DNA of 40,083 nt from an uncultured Bacilli bacterium (GTDB taxonomy: Bacteria > Bacillota_I > Bacilli_A > RF39 > UBA660): NCBI GenBank assembly GCA_947623815.1, contig CANQHO010000006.1, positions 1-40,083 of the forward strand. The letters run 5' to 3'. The notes under the pieces were generated by a model. It was not told the DNA's origin, made no database searches, and saw only the letters and a program-made list of their open reading frames with translations. Below, one piece after another: positions 6,880 to 31,610 of this stretch; within the stretch, counting starts at the first letter, position 1; the number at the start of each line of letters is the position of its first letter. The position numbers were made by a program, and so were the translations under genes.

Positions 6880-7992
6880 TCTTATTGGAACTATAAGTTC
6901 AAGTAATTTATCATCTTCGACGTTTTTTATAACAATTGGTTTTATTTCCCCACTAAACATTAAAATTATTCTTTCACATTCTAAGGCTTTTACAGCATCC
7001 ATCATATATTTTGATGAAAACGCTATTCTTATATTTTCTTCATTGTTTTTAGTTGCTTCAATTATTTCTTCCACATTTCCTATTTCGGGTATATTAGAAG
7101 ATATTTGAATTTCATTATCTCTAGTTACTAAATTTATAGTATTTTTATCTTCTTCATTAGTAAATAATGATGCTCTATCTAAGGCTTCATAAAATTCATG
7201 GAGATTAACTTCAATGGTAAGTAAGAAATCATTGGGGATAAGCGCTGATAAATTAGGGAAACTTCCATTTATTAACCTAGACATAAATATTATATTGTTA
7301 AATTTAAATATTACTTTATTATTGAATATATGAATATTTATATCTTCTTCATCGTCATTTATAAGTTTTACTAATTCATTTAAATTCTTAGTGGGAATAA
7401 CTATATTTATGGCTTCTTTAACATTTTCTTTTAGTAAAATATCTTTTTTACTAACCCGATATGAATCAGTAGCACTTATTTCCATAATATTACCTTCACA
7501 TTTAAAGTTAATTCCGGTTAAAACAGGTTTTGATTCTTGATTAGAAGATGCAAAGGCGGTTTGTCTAATAACATTTTTGAACATAGTTTTTTCTATTTGA
7601 ATTGGATTTTTACTATCACTTAAATCTAATATTGGAAATTCACTTGGTATATTACAATTTAAATTAGTAGATGATTTATCGGTTTCAATAATAATTTTAT
7701 TGTCGATAACTTCTTCTATTTTAATTATTTTATTTGGTAGTTTTCTAATTATTTCATATATATATTTACCGGATACTAGTATTTCACCACAACTATTTAT
7801 TTTTTCAATATCTTTCCTATCAATGAATGCTTTTATAGCAATATCATTATCTGTACTTAATAAATATAACCCTTCTTCTTTTAATTCAAATTTTATACAG
7901 TTTAAAACTGGTATCATATTTTTATTACTTATACCCCTTATTACATAGTTTAAGTATTCCATTAATATTGATTGTTTAATTTCTAAGTTCAT
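6871..7992 (-). CDS. dnaN: DNA polymerase III sliding clamp (beta subunit)
   Basis: DnaN forms the ring-shaped processivity clamp. The 373 residues match the family size and start with the typical MNLEIKQSILMEYLNYV; the C-terminus ends in LIVPIRTV, the clamp tail near the peptide-binding pocket. AAAGGAG precedes the ATG. It is downstream of dnaA with a 134-bp gap that contains DnaA-box-like sites and its own promoter. Confidence 0.97.
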   Translation of the reverse strand: MNLEIKQSILMEYLNYVIRGISNKNMIPVLNCIKFELKEEGLYLLSTDNDIAIKAFIDRKDIEKINSCGEILVSGKYIYEIIRKLPNKIIKIEEVIDNKIIIETDKSSTNLNCNIPSEFPILDLSDSKNPIQIEKTMFKNVIRQTAFASSNQESKPVLTGINFKCEGNIMEISATDSYRVSKKDILLKENVKEAINIVIPTKNLNELVKLINDDEEDINIHIFNNKVIFKFNNIIFMSRLINGSFPNLSALIPNDFLLTIEVNLHEFYEALDRASLFTNEEDKNTINLVTRDNEIQISSNIPEIGNVEEIIEATKNNEENIRIAFSSKYMMDAVKALECERIILMFSGEIKPIVIKNVEDDKLLELIVPIRTV

Positions 7993-12573: not shown

Positions 12574-13923
12574 ATGGAAGATACAATAGTGGCTATTTCA
12601 ACAGCCTTAGGAGTTGGAGCAATTTCGATAGTTCGAGTAAGTGGAACGGATGCTATAAGTATTGTAAATGAAATTTTTACTGGCAAAGATTTATCTAAAG
12701 TCGAATCTCATACAGTACATTATGGATTTATCAAAGAAGAAAATAAAAAAATAGATGAAGTTTTAATAACAGTTATGAAATCTCCTAAAACTTTTACTAG
12801 AGAAGATATTGTTGAAATAAATTGTCATGGTGGAATAATGACTACCAAAAAAATAATGGAATTGTTAATTAGAAAAGGTTGCCGAGTAGCCGAACCAGGA
12901 GAATTTACTAAAAGAGCATTTTTAAATGGAAGAATAGATTTATTAGAGGCCGAAGCCGTTATGGATATAATAGAAGCAAAAACCGAAAATAATGCAACTT
13001 TAGCGTTAAATCAATTGACTGGAAGTATATCAAATAAAATAGAATCATTAAGACAAGAAATAATTGAACTTTTAGCCTCGATAGAAGTTAGTATAGACTA
13101 TCCTGAATACGATGAGGCAAATCAAGCAACCAATGAATACTTAAAAACAGGTATAGAAAATATTTTAGAAAAGATTAAGAAAATAATAAAAAACAGTGAA
13201 GATGGAATTATTTTAAAAAATGGAATAAAAACTGTTATTTTAGGTAAACCAAATGTTGGAAAAAGCAGTTTATTAAATAGTTTATTAGAAGAAGAAAAAG
13301 CCATTGTAACTTCTATACCCGGAACAACTAGAGATATTGTTGAAGGATCAGTTAATATAGGTGGTTTAATTTTAGATATGATGGACACAGCCGGTATTAG
13401 AGAAACTGATGATAAAATAGAAGAAATAGGCGTTCAAAAAAGTCTGGAAATAATGAATCAAGCCGATTTGATTTTATATTTAGTAGATAGTTCTAATTAT
13501 CAAAAAGAAGATTTAGATTTGTTAAATAAAATAAAAGATAAAAAAGTTATTGTAATATTAAATAAAATAGATTTAAAAAATGATATATCTTTAGATAATG
13601 TAAGTTATCCTATAGTTAAAATAAGTGTCAAAGAAGGAATTGGAATAGACAATTTAAAAGAAGAAATAATTAAATTATTTAATCAAAATAAATTAGAAAC
13701 CAAAGATTTAACATATTTAACTAATGCTAGAAGTATAGCGTTACTAAAAAAATCTTATGATAGTTTGTTGTCGGCCCAAAATAGTTCTATAAATAATATG
13801 CCAGTCGATATTACAGAAATAGATTTAAAAGAAGCATGGAATTTATTGGGAATGATAATAGGAAAAACTTATGAAGATGAACTAATTGATCAGTTATTTT
13901 CCCAATTTTGTTTAGGAAAGTAA
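12574..13923 (+). CDS. mnmE: tRNA modification GTPase MnmE
   Basis: MnmE with MnmG adds the carboxymethylaminomethyl group to U34 of certain tRNAs. Of 449 residues, the N-terminal folate-binding domain ends near 118, followed by a helical domain that encloses the G domain: GKPNVGKSS (224-232), GTTRD (250-254), DTAG (271-274), NKID. The protein ends in CLGK, the CxGK motif with the catalytic Cys446. The partner mnmG lies 0.6 kb downstream, separated by an inserted gene on the other strand. Confidence 0.97.
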   Translation: MEDTIVAISTALGVGAISIVRVSGTDAISIVNEIFTGKDLSKVESHTVHYGFIKEENKKIDEVLITVMKSPKTFTREDIVEINCHGGIMTTKKIMELLIRKGCRVAEPGEFTKRAFLNGRIDLLEAEAVMDIIEAKTENNATLALNQLTGSISNKIESLRQEIIELLASIEVSIDYPEYDEANQATNEYLKTGIENILEKIKKIIKNSEDGIILKNGIKTVILGKPNVGKSSLLNSLLEEEKAIVTSIPGTTRDIVEGSVNIGGLILDMMDTAGIRETDDKIEEIGVQKSLEIMNQADLILYLVDSSNYQKEDLDLLNKIKDKKVIVILNKIDLKNDISLDNVSYPIVKISVKEGIGIDNLKEEIIKLFNQNKLETKDLTYLTNARSIALLKKSYDSLLSAQNSSINNMPVDITEIDLKEAWNLLGMIIGKTYEDELIDQLFSQFCLGK

Positions 13924-17211: not shown

Positions 17212-18870
17212 ATGAAGATTGAAAATGATGTAAAAATATTAAACTTAGATGATATTTTGCCAAATCGTTTTCAACCAAGAATTACTTTCAACGAACAAGC
17301 TATTTTGGAATTAGCTGATTCCATTAAAGAACATGGAGTAATCCAACCAATAATTGTTAGAAAAATAGCTGATAAGTTTGAAATAATTGCGGGAGAAAGA
17401 CGATATAAGGCAAGTGTATTAGCTGGTAAAACTAACATACCTGCTATAGTAGTTGATTTAAATGATAAAGATAGTGCTGAAATAGCCTTGATCGAAAATG
17501 TTCAAAGACAAGGATTAACCCCAATAGAAGAAGCAGTATCGTATAAAAAAATTCTTGATATGGGTTATTTAAATCAATCCGACTTAGCTAAAAAACTTGG
17601 AAAAAATCAATCGACAATAGCTAATAAATTAAGACTATTAAACTTAAGTGATGAAGTTCAAGATGCTTTATTAAAAGAAAGAATATCTGAACGCCATGCC
17701 CGTTCCTTATTAAGATTGGATAAAGAAAAACAAAATGTTATGTTAAATAGAATTATTACTGAACGCTTAACAGTTAGAAAAACTGATGAAGAAATAAGAA
17801 AAATGTTAGAACAATCAGATGATGATAATGGTGAAGAAAAACAATTAAATCCAATAAAGAAAGAAGGAAATGAAAATATGAATCAAAATGATGTAAATAA
17901 TGTTAATGTACCAAGTGAACCAGTTCAAGAAAATACTATAAATCCAGGATTTATGGATGTTAATAAAATAGAAAGTCAAGCAAGAGATATAAATAGTGTT
18001 TCCATGACTCCAGAAACTCCTGCTGTGGAACAGGCAAATGCTTCAATATTTACTGCTCCATCTCCAGTTGAAGTAACCCCAACACCTGTTACTACTCCAG
18101 AACCAGTATCAAATAGTATACCTCAACCGGATGTAGTTACTCCTCAGAGTTCATTTGATACTCCTCAAACTCCACAGATGGCAGTTCCACCTGTAATGCC
18201 AACTGAACAACCTATGCCACAACCAGATTTTAATCCAATGGAATCTGAATTAGTAAGTGGAGGAAAATTCTTTAATATACCTGTTGATAATGGAAATGAT
18301 GTAAATAATAATATGAATACTCAACCAGTTAATAATACTTTTGGTATTCCAACTCAACCTATTATGGGTCAAGAAAATGTAGCAATGCCAGAAACTAATC
18401 AAGTAAATCCAGTTGCTTCTATGTTTGCCGCCAATCAAAATCAAGCAGTTGAAAGTATACCAACAACACCTGATATGACCAAAATAAATTCTAATTTAAG
18501 TGCTCCAGTAAATAATGAACCTATATATAATCAAACTATTCCTAATGAACCAATAATTACGCAAAATCCAGCAATGACAAATCCAAGTCCAATGAATTCA
18601 TTTGGAATGAATCAAACCCAAAATATGGGAAATTTTAACCCTAATCAAAGTTTAGTGGAAATAGGAGGCAATGGTGTAGCAACTGAAGAACCTGTTTTAC
18701 AACCAGTTATGCAAACAGTTGTCCAACCAAAAAAAGCTGATTTAAAAGAAGCAATTATGCTAATTAGAAATTGTGCAGATAAAATAGAAAGTATGGGATT
18801 TATAATTGATGTAGAAGAATTAGATTTTGAAAATTCTTATCAAGTTTCTTTTAAAATAAATAAAGATTAA
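17212..18870 (+). CDS. noc: Noc-type ParB-family nucleoid occlusion protein with a long linker
   Basis: ParB-family CTP switches spread on DNA; Noc keeps the division ring off the nucleoid. The 552 residues comprise the N-terminal CTP domain with NRFQPR (18-23), GERR (61-64) and ENVQR (95-99), and an HTH domain (121-165). The family C-terminal dimer domain is at 505-552, where IMLIRNCADKIESMGF to YQVSFKINK resembles the end of Bacillus Noc. At the four residues that separate Noc from ParB it has Gln133, Lys139, Asn144 and Arg161, that is three of four Noc-type. The N-terminal amphipathic membrane helix of Noc is absent. Between the two halves lie about 300 residues of Pro/Asn/Gln/Thr-rich, probably disordered sequence. 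The rsmG neighbour matches Bacillus. No parA or second parB is nearby. Confidence 0.85.
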   Translation: MKIENDVKILNLDDILPNRFQPRITFNEQAILELADSIKEHGVIQPIIVRKIADKFEIIAGERRYKASVLAGKTNIPAIVVDLNDKDSAEIALIENVQRQGLTPIEEAVSYKKILDMGYLNQSDLAKKLGKNQSTIANKLRLLNLSDEVQDALLKERISERHARSLLRLDKEKQNVMLNRIITERLTVRKTDEEIRKMLEQSDDDNGEEKQLNPIKKEGNENMNQNDVNNVNVPSEPVQENTINPGFMDVNKIESQARDINSVSMTPETPAVEQANASIFTAPSPVEVTPTPVTTPEPVSNSIPQPDVVTPQSSFDTPQTPQMAVPPVMPTEQPMPQPDFNPMESELVSGGKFFNIPVDNGNDVNNNMNTQPVNNTFGIPTQPIMGQENVAMPETNQVNPVASMFAANQNQAVESIPTTPDMTKINSNLSAPVNNEPIYNQTIPNEPIITQNPAMTNPSPMNSFGMNQTQNMGNFNPNQSLVEIGGNGVATEEPVLQPVMQTVVQPKKADLKEAIMLIRNCADKIESMGFIIDVEELDFENSYQVSFKINKD

Positions 18871-27062: not shown

Positions 27063-27194
27063 TTCTTGTATTACTAATTTTTGTTTAATTTCTTTTAATC
27101 TTTCTTTTCTTTCGGAATTTTTTGATAATTTTTCTAACTTATCTAATGCAAAAATTAGTTTTTCTTGTTCGGTTAATTTATTTTTTGGGTCCAT
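27036..27194 (-). CDS. Small 52-residue protein coupled to the 788-residue gene
   Basis: I do not recognise it. It starts MDPKNKLTEQEKLIFALDK, is rich in Lys, Glu and Leu with a heptad-like pattern (LDKLEKLSK...ERLKEIKQKL), so a single coiled-coil helix is likely, and ends in RGCNEMK. It overlaps the 3' end of the upstream gene by 17 bases and has its own GAGGAGAT eight bases before the ATG, so it is translationally coupled. Its last codons are within repeated hairpin copy 2. Confidence 0.7.
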   Translation of the reverse strand: MDPKNKLTEQEKLIFALDKLEKLSKNSERKERLKEIKQKLVIQEKRGCNEMK

Positions 27195-29544
27195 TTATTA
27201 TTATCTCCTCTTTTAAAGTATTATTAAGTTTGTTAGTTAAGATAGTTAAATCTATATCATCCCCTTTACTTCCATAACTAGATATAATGGTAATAGCTTC
27301 ATTAATTAATTCTTGATATTCATTTATATCAATTAAATTTTTGTTAAAAGATTGCCCTAATAAGTTAATAAATAAATTATATTTTTCTTTTAAATTACCT
27401 TTACTATATAAAATATTATGGACATCATTTTTATTAAAAGATATAATTTCTCTATTTTGATAGTATTCTTTTAAATTTCTATTTTTTTCTTTATATTTTT
27501 GTCTGTTAATAACATATATTGGTATATTAAAATATTGAGCGGCTAATTTGGATTCGTCATTTATATTTCCATCAAAGCAAATAATACAATTTGGTTGTAT
27601 TCTGTGATCAAATTCAGGTTTTGAACTACTTTTTCTATTTAAAACAACTTCATTATAATTTTCACTTTCTGATTGTAAAACATCTGGATTCATATAATGA
27701 TTGGAAAAACTAGATGGGTTTAATTCTCTTTCGTCAAATTCAATACCAATATCACAAGAATCCATTAAGTATAATGAATTATCTGAAACGTTATTAAAAC
27801 CATAATATACAGAATCTTTTCTGCCATTACCTACACATTCCATATGTGTATTACTTATCATACTAGTTGACAAAGTTGAAGATCCTTCTAATTGATTCCA
27901 AAGGGCTGGGTTATTTATTATTTTATTATTATGAATATTAAAAGAATCAATATTATGGATTAAAAGTTTAAAATCAATTCCATCTAATTCTACTATATTT
28001 ATAAGGTTATCACTGGAGATTTTTTTATTGTTAATATCTAAAATTTCACTATTGATACTGGGTATTGTACTATATTTAATACCTGTTTTTTTCTTATAAT
28101 CAGGTTTAAATAAAGAATTTTTAAGCAAGGTACTATAATAATTTTTTAATTTTTTTTCTATTTCAAATAAAGAACTATTTATTTGACCTAATTTAATAAT
28201 GTCATTAAATTTTAATTTAAGAAGATCAATATCATTTTCACTAATTATTTCTTTTATTATTTCTATACTTGCGATATCTTTAATACTTAAAATGTTATTC
28301 TTTTCTATAATATTAGTCATAAAATTTTTTGAATCAATATTATATTCTCTAAATATTCTTTTTGTTTCAACAATATTGGTATTAAATAAAATTTGTAAAA
28401 TATTATTTTTAATTTCTTCTAAAGAATTATTTTGCATTTTTCCTTCTAGTAAATTTTGACGATAATGTTGATAATTAGTTAATTCATCAATATTTGAAAC
28501 ATTAAAATTATTTTTTTTAGATAATACTTCTATAAGAATATTTTGTTGTTTTTCATTTAAAGTAACATGATTATCTAAAATATTTTTAATTAGGGGTTTG
28601 GTATTTTCATAATTTAATAAAGCCATATGTAAAAGTTTTTTGTCATAAATAGTCAATTTAGATATGTAATCAATCCATTGTTTTAATAAAGTATCCCCAT
28701 TTAATGTAGTTTTTATTAAAATTTTATCAGCCCCACTGTTATATTCTAGTATTGTAGAAATAATTGTATATCCATATGTATTAACAATTATAGGGTTAAG
28801 CAATTCAACAGTTTTAAGAACCGGATTATTTAGTTTTAGTTCCGGGCGTACTTGAAGTAAATTATGTAAAGATTGATTTAAGTATTTTATCTCTTCTGTT
28901 TCAACACCAAGATGTTGTAGGAGTAATAAAGTTTTAGTTTTTTTATATTTCAAAAAATATTGATAAGTTAATTTTTTTGCTTCATTGACTGTTAAAAATT
29001 GTTTTTGTTTATTATTATTTAAAAAATCAAAAAAATCATTATCACATTTGATTAGGTTATCATAACCAAAAGTTTCAATCAAAAGTAAAAGTTGATCATT
29101 TTTAAATATACTTGAAAATTTTTGTAAAGGAGTATTTTCTAAAACAATTGCCATATCAATAGTATTAAAACAATCTGTTCTTAATAAAGAAACTGGTATT
29201 TTTTGGGGATTTTTAATATCACAATTTTTAAAATTAACAAACTTATCTATATCCAAATTTATAATTGCAAAATCTAAATTGGCCTTACTTTTAGAAAAAT
29301 CTGCTATATGTTTTTCATCACTAAAAACATACATGTTTTCCCATGCTTCAAAAGGAATATCACTCAAATCATAAGTTAAAAGTTGACTTTGAAAATTAAA
29401 ATAAGAATCTAACGCTTGTTGTTCATACATATTTTCATCAAAATTAGGATTATCTTGATTTTGACTAATAATTGTTGATACTTGTTCAATAAATTCTTGC
29501 ATTTTTTGCTTAAATTCATTAAATTGATTTAAGTTTAGCCTCAT
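27178..29544 (-). CDS. Large protein of unknown function with a C-terminal conserved-looking domain
   Basis: I do not recognise this 788-residue protein. No signal peptide or membrane helix is seen, so it is cytoplasmic or secreted by another route. Residues 1-480 are mostly helical, Leu/Asn/Lys-rich. From about 520 the character changes to a mixed alpha/beta domain: FKLLIHNID (525-533), STLSTSMIS (556-564), YNEVVLNR (630-637), then IQPNCIICFDG and IPIYVIN (649-680), which look like alternating strands. The order 'LLIH, STS, EVVLxR' vaguely recalls ADP-ribosyltransferases, but the catalytic Arg and ExE are not seen. It points against replication, with a 52-residue partner downstream. AGGAG stands 11 bases before the ATG. 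Confidence 0.75.
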   Translation of the reverse strand: MRLNLNQFNEFKQKMQEFIEQVSTIISQNQDNPNFDENMYEQQALDSYFNFQSQLLTYDLSDIPFEAWENMYVFSDEKHIADFSKSKANLDFAIINLDIDKFVNFKNCDIKNPQKIPVSLLRTDCFNTIDMAIVLENTPLQKFSSIFKNDQLLLLIETFGYDNLIKCDNDFFDFLNNNKQKQFLTVNEAKKLTYQYFLKYKKTKTLLLLQHLGVETEEIKYLNQSLHNLLQVRPELKLNNPVLKTVELLNPIIVNTYGYTIISTILEYNSGADKILIKTTLNGDTLLKQWIDYISKLTIYDKKLLHMALLNYENTKPLIKNILDNHVTLNEKQQNILIEVLSKKNNFNVSNIDELTNYQHYRQNLLEGKMQNNSLEEIKNNILQILFNTNIVETKRIFREYNIDSKNFMTNIIEKNNILSIKDIASIEIIKEIISENDIDLLKLKFNDIIKLGQINSSLFEIEKKLKNYYSTLLKNSLFKPDYKKKTGIKYSTIPSINSEILDINNKKISSDNLINIVELDGIDFKLLIHNIDSFNIHNNKIINNPALWNQLEGSSTLSTSMISNTHMECVGNGRKDSVYYGFNNVSDNSLYLMDSCDIGIEFDERELNPSSFSNHYMNPDVLQSESENYNEVVLNRKSSSKPEFDHRIQPNCIICFDGNINDESKLAAQYFNIPIYVINRQKYKEKNRNLKEYYQNREIISFNKNDVHNILYSKGNLKEKYNLFINLLGQSFNKNLIDINEYQELINEAITIISSYGSKGDDIDLTILTNKLNNTLKEEIIINGPKK

Positions 29545-29575: not shown

Positions 29576-29624
29576 ACATCAATTATTTAAAACCTGAATA
29601 AAGCAAAATCTTTTTTACGTTTTA

Positions 29625-29653
29625 TTTACAACTTTCCTATTCCATAGTATAAT
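29625..29653 (+). promoter_or_regulatory. Promoter of yvcK-whiA
   Basis: TTTACA (29625-29630), 17 bp, TATAAT (29648-29653). The leader would be about 68 nt. Confidence 0.7.
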
Positions 29654-29681
29654 AAAATTACTTATGAAATACTATTTATAG

Positions 29682-29727
29682 AAAGGAGGCAATAGGTAAA
29701 TATTAAACAAAACCTATTGTTATTTTT
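29682..29727 (+). promoter_or_regulatory. Hairpin-bridged ribosome binding site of yvcK
   Basis: AAAGGAGG (29682-29689) is 38 bases from the ATG, too far to act directly. A hairpin starts on the very next base: CAATAGGT (29690-29697), 14-nt loop, ACCTATTG (29712-29719), then eight bases and the ATG. Folding leaves an effective spacing of eight. No other ribosome site or start codon fits, because an in-frame TAA lies at 29704-29706. Confidence 0.75.
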
Positions 29728-30699
29728 ATGAGAAAAAAAGTTGTAGTATTAGGTGGCGGTACAGGTATGTCCCAACTCCTTAAAGGTTTGAAAGAATTTC
29801 CTATTGACATAACCGCTATTGTATCAGTTTGTGATGATGGAAATAGTACCGGTAGACTTAGAAAAGAATTTAATACTTTGGCTGTAGGCGATATAAGAAA
29901 AGTTATTGTAAGTTTGTCAAACACAGACCCTTTAATGGATGAAATAATGAATTATCGTTTTAAAACAACAAGCGATTTAAATGGCCATACTGTTGGAAAT
30001 TTAATGCTTATTTCCATGCTTAACTTAGTGGGAAATGTATCAGATGGTATTTCTTCTTTAAAACAAGTATTTAACTTGAAAGGAAAGGTTTTACCATTAA
30101 CTGAAGAGGCAGTTACTTTAATAGGAGAAATGATGGATGGTACAATTGTCGAAGGCGAACATAATATTTTAAATAATAATAAACCAATCAAACGAGTTTA
30201 TTATAAAAAAGATCCTAAAGTCCATCCGGAAGTTATAAAAACAATCAAAGAAGCTGATTTAATTGTATTAAGTATGGGAAGTTTATATACTAGTATTATT
30301 TCCAATCTAATTTGTAAAGAAGTAATAAATGCTTTAGATGAAAGTAAGGCTCCTATAGCCTATATTTGTAATATCATGACTCAGCCTGGCGAAACAAATA
30401 ATTTTACAGTTTATAATCATATAGAATGTTTGAATAAATATTTAGGAAAAAGAAAAATAAATACAGTATTTGTCAATAATGGCAGAATACCATCTAATAT
30501 TTTAAAAAAATATGAAAGTATGGAACAAAAAGATCAAGTAAAAATAGATGAAAATAATTTAAAAGATAATTCTATTATTGTATTTAAAAATAATTATGTT
30601 ACAATTGAGGAAGAGAGGATAAAACATCAAACTGAAAAATTAGCTTTAGATGTTTATAGATATATAATAGGTGATTTATGTCGTTCACAAGTCAAGTAA
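29728..30699 (+). CDS. yvcK: YvcK/GlmR-family gluconeogenesis and envelope factor
   Basis: YvcK (GlmR) binds UDP-GlcNAc and supports precursor supply for peptidoglycan, being needed on gluconeogenic carbon in Bacillus. The 323 residues begin VVVLGGGTGMSQLLKGL (GGGTG at 9-13) and contain CDDGNSTGRLR (about 35-45), GDIRK, NGHTVGNLML and MTQPGET, all typical. It is followed by whiA with a 22-bp overlap. The rapZ/yvcJ gene usually upstream is absent here. The start codon uses an unusual hairpin-bridged ribosome site. Confidence 0.94.
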   Translation: MRKKVVVLGGGTGMSQLLKGLKEFPIDITAIVSVCDDGNSTGRLRKEFNTLAVGDIRKVIVSLSNTDPLMDEIMNYRFKTTSDLNGHTVGNLMLISMLNLVGNVSDGISSLKQVFNLKGKVLPLTEEAVTLIGEMMDGTIVEGEHNILNNNKPIKRVYYKKDPKVHPEVIKTIKEADLIVLSMGSLYTSIISNLICKEVINALDESKAPIAYICNIMTQPGETNNFTVYNHIECLNKYLGKRKINTVFVNNGRIPSNILKKYESMEQKDQVKIDENNLKDNSIIVFKNNYVTIEEERIKHQTEKLALDVYRYIIGDLCRSQVK

Positions 30700-31610
30700 A
30701 AAATGAAGTTGGTTCTTTAGAAATAATTATGCCGGAATGTTTATCTGAATTATCCGCCATTTTAAGAAATATTGGAGTAATTCAAAATGATGTGTTAAAA
30801 ATATCAACAGAAAATGAAACCGTAGCGCATAGAATATTTGAAATGTTTAGAAAAATTTTTTCTATCATACCTAAAGTAACTGTCAGAAAAGGATATAATT
30901 TTCATAAAAATTATATTTATCTTTTAGAAGTTAATACTAAATTAGAAGAAATACAGGAAACTTTAGCGTATTTAGATAATACTCCCCCACTATATTTAAT
31001 AGCCGATGAAAGGGAGAAAAGAGCGTATATCCAAGGACTTTTTTTAGCAACCGGTAGTATAAATGATCCTAAAAAATCTAGATATCATTTAGAATTTTCG
31101 GTAAATAATAAAGAGTATGCTTCTTTTTTATCTAAACTTTTAAATGAAATGTATTTAAATAGTAAAATCTTAAAAAGAGAAAATAAATATATGATATATA
31201 TTAAAGAAGCGGAAAAAATAGGTGATTTTTTAAGAATAATTGAATCGACCCAATCGTTATTTTATTATGAGGATATTAGAATTTATAGAGATCATGTAAA
31301 TATGACTAATAGATTAAATAATTGTGAACAAGCCAATGTTGATAAAATGATTCAAACGGCCACTAATCAAGTAAAAGATATTCAAATAATTGAAAAAATT
31401 CAAGGATTAAATTTATTAGATGATAAAACTAAAGAAGCGGCTATATATAGATTAAAATATCCGGAAGCATCATTACAAGAACTCAGTGAAATAATTACTT
31501 TAGAAACTGGCAATCCAATTACTAAGTCCGGTTTACACCATCGGTTTGTAAAAATAAAAAATTTAGCGGAAAAAATAAAAAATAAAGAAAAAAATATTGA
31601 AAAAAATTAA
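30678..31610 (+). CDS. whiA: WhiA, LAGLIDADG-like DNA-binding protein
   Basis: WhiA controls sporulation in Streptomyces and affects division and chromosome segregation in Bacillus. The 310 residues begin MSFTSQVKNEV, contain the homing-endonuclease-like fold (RAYIQGLFLATGSINDP, about 114-130) and a C-terminal HTH domain (YPEASLQELSEIIT to SGLHHRFVKIKNLA). AATAGGTGAT stands before the ATG within yvcK. The crh gene that follows in Bacillus is absent. Confidence 0.94.
   Translation: MSFTSQVKNEVGSLEIIMPECLSELSAILRNIGVIQNDVLKISTENETVAHRIFEMFRKIFSIIPKVTVRKGYNFHKNYIYLLEVNTKLEEIQETLAYLDNTPPLYLIADEREKRAYIQGLFLATGSINDPKKSRYHLEFSVNNKEYASFLSKLLNEMYLNSKILKRENKYMIYIKEAEKIGDFLRIIESTQSLFYYEDIRIYRDHVNMTNRLNNCEQANVDKMIQTATNQVKDIQIIEKIQGLNLLDDKTKEAAIYRLKYPEASLQELSEIITLETGNPITKSGLHHRFVKIKNLAEKIKNKEKNIEKN

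What the first reader, a model, noticed from the sequence alone, without database searches (positions are those of the whole stretch)
29682..29730. Shine-Dalgarno joined to the yvcK start through a hairpin
A strong AAAGGAGG is 38 bases from the only start codon, and an 8-bp stem (CAATAGGT/ACCTATTG) begins on the next base and ends eight bases before the ATG. Such a bridge is known from phage T4 gene 38. It could make translation depend on temperature or on a factor that opens the stem, fitting the tight control of YvcK and WhiA.
Basis: partly seen in the sequence, partly recalled or inferred. Interest (0 to 1): 0.62.

Follow-up and report, generated by a model that had tools for sequence, protein, structure and literature searches.

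The report
Hairpin-bridged ribosome binding site of yvcK
In a gut bacterium, the signal that docks the ribosome lies unusually far from the start of the yvcK gene, and the RNA in between folds into a small hairpin that appears to bring the two back to normal distance, a trick known from virus T4 but here seen, with matching changes in a sister species, in a bacterial chromosome.

Summary
AGAAAGGAGG (29680-29689) lies 38 nt from ATG 29728, with CAATAGGT (29690-29697) and ACCTATTG (29712-29719) between them and 8 nt left over. The sister species (89% identical YvcK; 49 of 91 fourfold sites differ) keeps the SD, an 8-bp stem and the identical 8-nt spacer, while its loop shrinks from 14 to 10 nt and one G-C pair becomes U-A. 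Other family yvcK genes carry an ordinary SD near the start. Folding predicts the hairpin in both species, and keeping it costs almost nothing when SD and start are exposed. Best reading: a split ribosome binding site bridged by a hairpin, as in T4 genes 38 and 25. It is constitutive as far as can be told. The temperature or stem-opening idea is not supported: the stem stays closed at 42 C, and bridging needs it closed. Two further candidates, nifU-like and yihY-like, were found in 761 kb of the same genome. Their sister-species orthologues have ordinary SDs, so the arrangement looks gained by hairpin insertion. The main rivals are SD-independent initiation, a regulatory hairpin, and a coupled AUU mini-ORF. 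No experiment was possible.

The parts
29625..29653 (+). promoter: TTTACA, 17 nt, TATAAT (11 of 12 consensus matches); implies a leader of roughly 65-70 nt
   Evidence: 57 of 60 bases of 29600-29659 identical in sister species. Transcription start not mapped.
29680..29689 (+). extended Shine-Dalgarno AGAAAGGAGG
   Evidence: sister has AGAAAGGAG then T. GAAAGGAG occurs 67 times in the genome against 14 for the reversed word; 49 of 66 sites examined have a start 3-16 nt downstream.
29690..29697 (+). 5' arm of bridging hairpin, CAATAGGT
   Evidence: sister CAATAGTT
29698..29711 (+). hairpin loop, 14 nt (10 nt in sister, sequence not conserved)
29712..29719 (+). 3' arm of bridging hairpin, ACCTATTG
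   Evidence: sister AACTATTG
29720..29727 (+). 8-nt spacer TTATTTTT from stem to start, identical in sister
29728..30699 (+). yvcK (323 aa), ATG start
   Evidence: TIGR01826, E 2.4e-100. Relatives with ordinary SDs begin at the same residue with the same MRKKVVV or similar N-terminus.
30678..31610 (+). whiA, overlapping the end of yvcK, presumably the same operon
   Evidence: TIGR00647

Best explanation
The yvcK leader is a split ribosome binding site bridged by a hairpin. The 30S subunit pairs with the 10-nt SD. The next 30 nt stay folded as an 8-bp stem-loop sitting outside the mRNA channel, so the path from SD to AUG is 8 nt (9 counted from the GGAG end) instead of 38, within this genome's ordinary range, and YvcK is translated from AUG 29728. 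Shown by sequence: the geometry and its conservation with a pair-restoring change in a sister species. Inferred: that the hairpin forms on the ribosome, that it is needed for initiation, and that it is constitutive rather than a switch. It most likely arose when an inverted repeat was inserted between an ordinary SD and start, and was tolerated because it folds out of the way.
For: Geometry. Chance of a bridging stem 1.2% by shuffling. Sister species G001 (L002/L004): same SD, 8-bp stem with a G-C to U-A replacement, loop 14 to 10 nt, spacer 8 of 8 identical, while 49 of 91 fourfold sites of yvcK differ, so leader identity is not just recent ancestry. Two random substitutions in the stem would hit one pair and restore it about 2% of the time (arithmetic). 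Folding: every stem pair 0.94 or more in the window species and 0.86 or more in the sister at 37 C; with SD and start region forced open, keeping the hairpin costs 0.06 and 0.11 kcal/mol, melting it 4.4 and 4.8 kcal/mol more. Residual spacing of 9 nt from the GGAG end falls in the 4-11 nt range that holds 188 of 201 ordinary strong SDs here. Of 47 yvcK loci, 42 have an SD-like core near the start by script, and two more by eye (L025, L016); the other three are the window and two copies of the sister. Two more SD-hairpin-start leaders in 761,438 bases of this genome, at nifU-like and yihY-like genes. Precedent: T4 genes 38 (22 to 5 nt) and 25 (27 to 11 nt), with stem-destabilising mutations lowering initiation (PMC3014915, passage).
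Against: Only two species have it, so there is one covariation event. The alignment of the 5' arm is ambiguous: either G to T plus a loop deletion or loss of one G plus A to T; both restore the stem. The sister's leader as a whole folds no better than shuffles (z +0.78). In the window species the predicted full fold also pairs the start codon and part of the SD, costing 12.2 kcal/mol to open against 6.75 in the sister, which might mean repression there. The orthologues of the two extra cases are not bridged in the sister. A reversed-SD control in the census gave 2 hits in 26 pairs, against 5 in 50 for the true SD, pooled over four sets, so hairpins in such places are not much rarer without an SD. 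Some genes here have no SD-like core near an early start (117 of 731 ORFs by a crude caller), so SD-independent starts may exist.
Confidence: 0.7

Rival explanations
1. SD-independent initiation: the ribosome loads on the U-rich, unpaired stretch at the AUG, and the distant SD and hairpin are a remnant, a standby site or an mRNA-stability element.
For: 117 of 731 ORFs in the census lack an SD-like core near an early start (crude gene calls, some surely wrong); a few look leaderless, with a TATAAT-like box 6-8 nt before ATG.
Against: Does not explain why the SD, the stem with a restoring change and the exact 8-nt spacer are all kept at 54% fourfold divergence. All other family yvcK loci examined use a near SD.
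Confidence: 0.11
2. Regulatory hairpin: a structure-forming leader (thermometer, or target of a protein or small RNA) that represses yvcK by pairing the SD and AUG and opens on a signal.
For: In the window species the predicted fold extends below the stem and pairs UUAUAGAAA with UUUUUAUGA, covering the AUG; z -3.0 for 101 nt; 12.2 kcal/mol to open.
Against: The extension is not kept in the sister: z +0.78, opening cost 6.75 kcal/mol. The conserved stem excludes SD core and AUG and does not melt by 42 C. No Rfam family matched.
Confidence: 0.1
3. The SD serves a mini-ORF with a near-cognate AUU start whose stop overlaps the real start (AUU 29702 to UGA 29729-29731, AUGA overlap), and yvcK is translated by coupling.
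For: An AUU-to-stop frame ending at or just before the start exists in all four leaders: yvcK in both species (offset 13 and 12 from GGAG), nifU-like (9), yihY-like (11). Non-canonical starts with extended SDs are described for S. aureus (PMC13009471, passages).
Against: Each is common in shuffles: ATT alone 0.149, 0.206, 0.234 and 0.051 of 5,000, and it was noticed after the fact. Offsets of 12-13 nt lie outside the range of nearly all ordinary SDs here. It does not explain the paired change in the stem.
Confidence: 0.06
4. DNA-level inverted repeat (operator for a dimeric regulator) or a weak intrinsic terminator.
For: Perfect 8-bp inverted repeat followed by TTATTTTT.
Against: Half-site centres move from 22 to 18 bp between species, about 0.4 helical turn. 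A pattern covering both versions is not enriched in the genus genomes over its reversed control (14 v 21, 24 v 18, 15 v 40). The terminator scan found none; loops of 14 and 10 nt are long for terminators.
Confidence: 0.03

Closest known systems
Phage T4 gene 38 translation initiation region
   Same: SD too far from AUG (22 nt), hairpin immediately after the SD, residual spacer short (5 nt); leader read here as SD AAGGAG followed by 22 nt and ATG
   Different: Phage gene, G+C-rich stem with a UUCG loop; here a bacterial gene, A+T-rich 8-bp stem with a 10-14 nt loop, 38 to 8 nt, stronger SD
Phage T4 gene 25 split RBS (review PMC3014915 citing Malys and Nivinskas)
   Same: 27 nt reduced to 11; structure kept in close T-even phages and absent from distant relatives, the same taxonomic pattern as here (passage; leader)
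   Different: Tested by reporters and DMS probing there; here sequence evidence only
Extended SD initiation of S. aureus (PMC13009471)
   Same: Long SD:anti-SD helices in low-GC Firmicutes (passages read)
   Different: Extension there runs towards the start codon with ordinary spacing; no bridging hairpin in the passages I read
RNA thermometers and translational riboswitches
   Same: Structure around the SD and start
   Different: Those hide the SD; here the conserved stem lies between SD and AUG and leaves both free

Membership tests
hairpin-bridged (split) ribosome binding site, T4 gene 38/25 type | SD lies beyond ordinary spacing from the only usable start codon | tested here: met
   38 nt (sister 34-35); ordinary strong SDs here 4-11 nt in 188 of 201; no other start
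hairpin-bridged (split) ribosome binding site, T4 gene 38/25 type | intervening hairpin reduces the spacing to a functional one | tested here: met
   by prediction: 8 nt left; pairs 0.94 or more (window) and 0.86 or more (sister) at 37 C
hairpin-bridged (split) ribosome binding site, T4 gene 38/25 type | pairing conserved while loop sequence varies | tested here: met
   two species, one restoring change, loop 14 v 10 nt; a small sample with an ambiguous 5'-arm alignment
hairpin-bridged (split) ribosome binding site, T4 gene 38/25 type | stem-breaking mutations reduce initiation and compensation restores it | not testable with these tools
   needs reporters in a tractable host
RNA thermometer | conserved structure occludes SD or AUG and melts in the physiological range | tested here: not met
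   conserved stem excludes SD core and AUG; stays paired at 42 C; the occluding extension in the window species is not seen in the sister
intrinsic terminator / attenuator | G+C-rich stem, short loop, U tract | tested here: not met
   none found by scan
coupled mini-ORF | start codon at ordinary spacing from the SD | tested here: not met
   no ATG/GTG/TTG 3-14 nt downstream; only ATA and ATT, the ATT at 12-13 nt in yvcK

The most novel reading that the evidence does not exclude
Inverted-repeat insertions between SD and start are a recurrent, tolerated route of leader evolution in these AT-rich gut Bacilli: the ribosome works across a folded hairpin, so one genome holds several independently arisen bridged genes (yvcK, nifU-like, yihY-like), and some such hairpins are then kept by selection on the stem. 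Gene finders and RBS models that use linear spacing would misjudge them.
Probability: 0.3. Interest if true: 0.62.

Novelty: new member of a known kind. Interest (0 to 1): 0.46.

Why it matters
The bridge trick is documented for two phage T4 genes (review passage). The nine answered paper searches, aimed at it or at yvcK/whiA, showed me no bacterial chromosomal case in their listings, though the library is partial. A case in a widely conserved bacterial gene, with a restoring change between species and two more candidates in the same genome, offers natural material for asking how large a structure the 30S platform tolerates between SD and start. It also explains why linear-spacing models would call this strong SD useless.

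Tried and rejected
Leader-wide DNA search in 386 family genomes: only the sister matches the leader at length; the other matches are short pieces of promoter-like or N-terminal coding sequence. 16S tail pattern: none, as often in MAGs. Rfam: only the SRP RNA. IR as an operator family: not enriched. Terminator: none.

The census changed as it went. One search (window plus 20 stretches, 394 ORFs) listed yvcK plus two genes that have an ordinary SD upstream (L125, L141), dropped. One search (6-bp minimum, 731 ORFs) listed yvcK, L152, L166 and L137 (A/T-only stem, TTG), L137 dropped for lacking a G-C pair. One search used a stricter rule that dropped yvcK itself, because an internal ATG has AGGT before it, and gave 2 hits of 10 pairs. 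One search is the final rule. Results: G000 3 of 13 pairs (shuffle mean 0.216; 0 of 500 reach 3), reversed SD 0 of 12; G001 1 of 8 (yvcK), reversed 1 of 5; G002 1 of 23 (L206, residual spacing too long to count as clean), reversed 1 of 6, the same site; G199+G245 0 of 6, reversed 0 of 3. Pooled this is 5 of 50 against 2 of 26: the reversed control does not separate well, the shuffles do (0.43 expected in all). The extra cases are therefore leads, not proof. In one search, 66 of 67 GAAAGGAG sites were listed; one, at a contig end (L122), was dropped, apparently by the script's duplicate filter, and not looked at apart.

Full report
WHAT IS THERE. The window (contig C6 of a 1.36-Mb, 96-contig genome) carries yvcK (29728-30699), whiA (30678-31610), an unnamed ORF and rplI in one direction. 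Upstream, on the other strand, is a 788-aa ORF (27178-29544). A good sigma-70-type promoter, TTTACA-17-TATAAT, lies at 29625-29653, so the leader should begin near 29660. It contains AGAAAGGAGG (29680-29689), then directly CAATAGGT (29690-29697), a 14-nt loop, ACCTATTG (29712-29719), TTATTTTT (29720-29727) and ATG. Every number in the finding is right. Between an in-frame TAA at 29704 and ATG 29728 there is no other ATG/GTG/TTG, and no canonical start in any frame lies 3-14 nt behind the SD.

IS IT MORE THAN CHANCE. A perfect 8-bp stem placed to bridge SD and start came up in 1.2% of 20,000 dinucleotide shuffles of the spacer; any 8-bp stem came up in 7.0%. That alone is modest.

THE SISTER SPECIES. 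One other genome of the genus (G001; contig CANRBE010000004.1, 'uncultured Bacilli bacterium', seen as L002 and L004) has YvcK 89% identical. Its leader reads AGAAAGGAG-T-CAATAGTT-10 nt-AACTATTG-TTATTTTT-ATG. Stem, spacer and SD are kept, the loop is shorter and different, and one pair went from G-C to U-A. At fourfold-degenerate sites the two yvcK genes differ at 49 of 91, so this conservation is selective. The 5' arm can be aligned in two ways (a G-to-T change with a loop deletion; or loss of one G with an A-to-T change). Either way both arms changed and the 8 bp were restored. In the wider family the arrangement is absent. Of 47 yvcK loci, 42 have an SD-like core near the start by script, L025 and L016 by eye, and the remaining three are the window and two copies of the sister (a few loci are the same contig fetched twice). 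A DNA search with the leader in 386 family genomes found it at length only in these two species.

FOLDING. At 37 C all eight pairs have probability 0.94 or more in the window species and 0.86 or more in the sister. At 42 C the lowest values are 0.93 and 0.82. When SD and start region are forced open, as on a ribosome, keeping the hairpin costs 0.06 and 0.11 kcal/mol, whereas melting the spacer costs 4.4 and 4.8 more. The window species also shows a longer fold that pairs the AUG (z -3.0; 12.2 kcal/mol to open). The sister does not (z +0.78; 6.75 kcal/mol), so I do not build on it.

HOW IT MOST LIKELY WORKS. The 30S subunit docks by a long SD helix, the hairpin is looped out next to that helix, and the remaining 8 nt (9 from the GGAG end) place AUG in the P site. 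Ordinary strong SDs of this genome sit 4-11 nt from the start in 188 of 201 cases. This is inference from geometry and conservation; ribosome binding was not tested.

OTHER CASES IN THE SAME GENOME. GAAAGGAG occurs 67 times (reversed word 14); 49 of 66 sites examined have a start 3-16 nt downstream. Among the rest is L111/L166: AGAAAGGAG-AT-TAGTAAAA-TTT-TTTTACTA-TGATAAA-ATG before a 77-aa NifU-domain protein (PF01106). A census of 761,438 bases and 731 ORFs added L152: AAGGAGG-A-AAGTAAG-TAA-TTTACTT-AGTAGTTTA-ATG before a YihY-family protein. In the sister the orthologues have plain leaders: AAAAGGAGAAAATATG for nifU-like and AAAGGAGATAAGTAATGG for yihY-like. The last pair looks like an insertion that made an inverted copy of the existing AAGTAA; that mechanism is my inference. 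Statistics are mixed: 3 hits against 0.216 expected from shuffles in this genome, but pooled over four sets 5 of 50 true-SD pairs against 2 of 26 reversed-SD pairs, one of these the same site. The two extra cases are leads.

COMPARISON WITH WHAT IS KNOWN. T4 genes 38 and 25 have SD-AUG distances of 22 and 27 nt reduced to 5 and 11 by an intervening structure; stem-weakening mutations lower initiation, and the gene 25 structure is confined to close T-even phages (passage of PMC3014915 read). I read both T4 leaders directly and they show the same order of parts. By works-like and by the testable membership features this leader belongs to that kind; the functional feature (mutation and compensation) could not be tested. 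The answered paper searches listed nothing I recognised as a bacterial chromosomal example, but the library lacks most subscription journals, and only passages of PMC3014915, PMC13009471 and PMC11087576 were read.

RIVALS. SD-independent start, regulatory hairpin, AUU mini-ORF coupled through an AUGA overlap, DNA operator or terminator are weighed in their own sections. The mini-ORF deserves mention: an AUU-to-stop frame ending at or near the start is present in all four leaders, but each is common in shuffled spacers (0.05-0.23) and in yvcK it is too far from the SD.

VERDICT. Observation confirmed; bridge interpretation likely (0.7); regulation by temperature or an opener unsupported. A new, probably chromosomal, member of a known but rarely described kind.

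Noticed in passing
L137 (G000:C9), minus strand, 17190-17120: AGGAGGTGATAGAA is followed by an open frame without a canonical start at ordinary spacing; an AUA codon sits 9 nt from GGAG. Possible AUA start or a mis-called gene.
   Followed up: partly
L206 (genus-mate G002, contig C13), 2245-2308: AGGAGG followed by a perfect 10-bp hairpin (TAATCGATCT/AGATCGATTA) and 13 nt before an ATG of a 250-aa ORF; residual spacing is long for a clean bridge.
   Followed up: no
window 29645-29651 and 29668-29674: Inverted repeat ATAGTAT / ATACTAT spans the -10 box and the first transcribed bases; both arms are kept in the sister, and 57 of 60 bases of 29600-29659 are identical although fourfold sites of yvcK differ at 54%. 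A regulator site is possible.
   Followed up: no
L134 + strand near 13283; L136 minus strand near 7491: TATAAT-like boxes 6-8 nt before ATG, leaderless-looking genes in a genome otherwise rich in SDs.
   Followed up: no
L104 (G000:C52:2790-3400), minus strand: GGAGG followed by a long perfect palindrome (CTATTTTATGTAGTTAACTACATAAAATAG) beside an ORF that looks like a tyrosine recombinase (by eye, not searched); perhaps a recombination site or terminator.
   Followed up: no
L186 (G001:C16), minus strand near 17641: A perfect 8-bp AGTTGGTT/AACCAACT hairpin inside what looks like coding sequence, which served as a reminder that such hairpins occur without an SD role.
   Followed up: no
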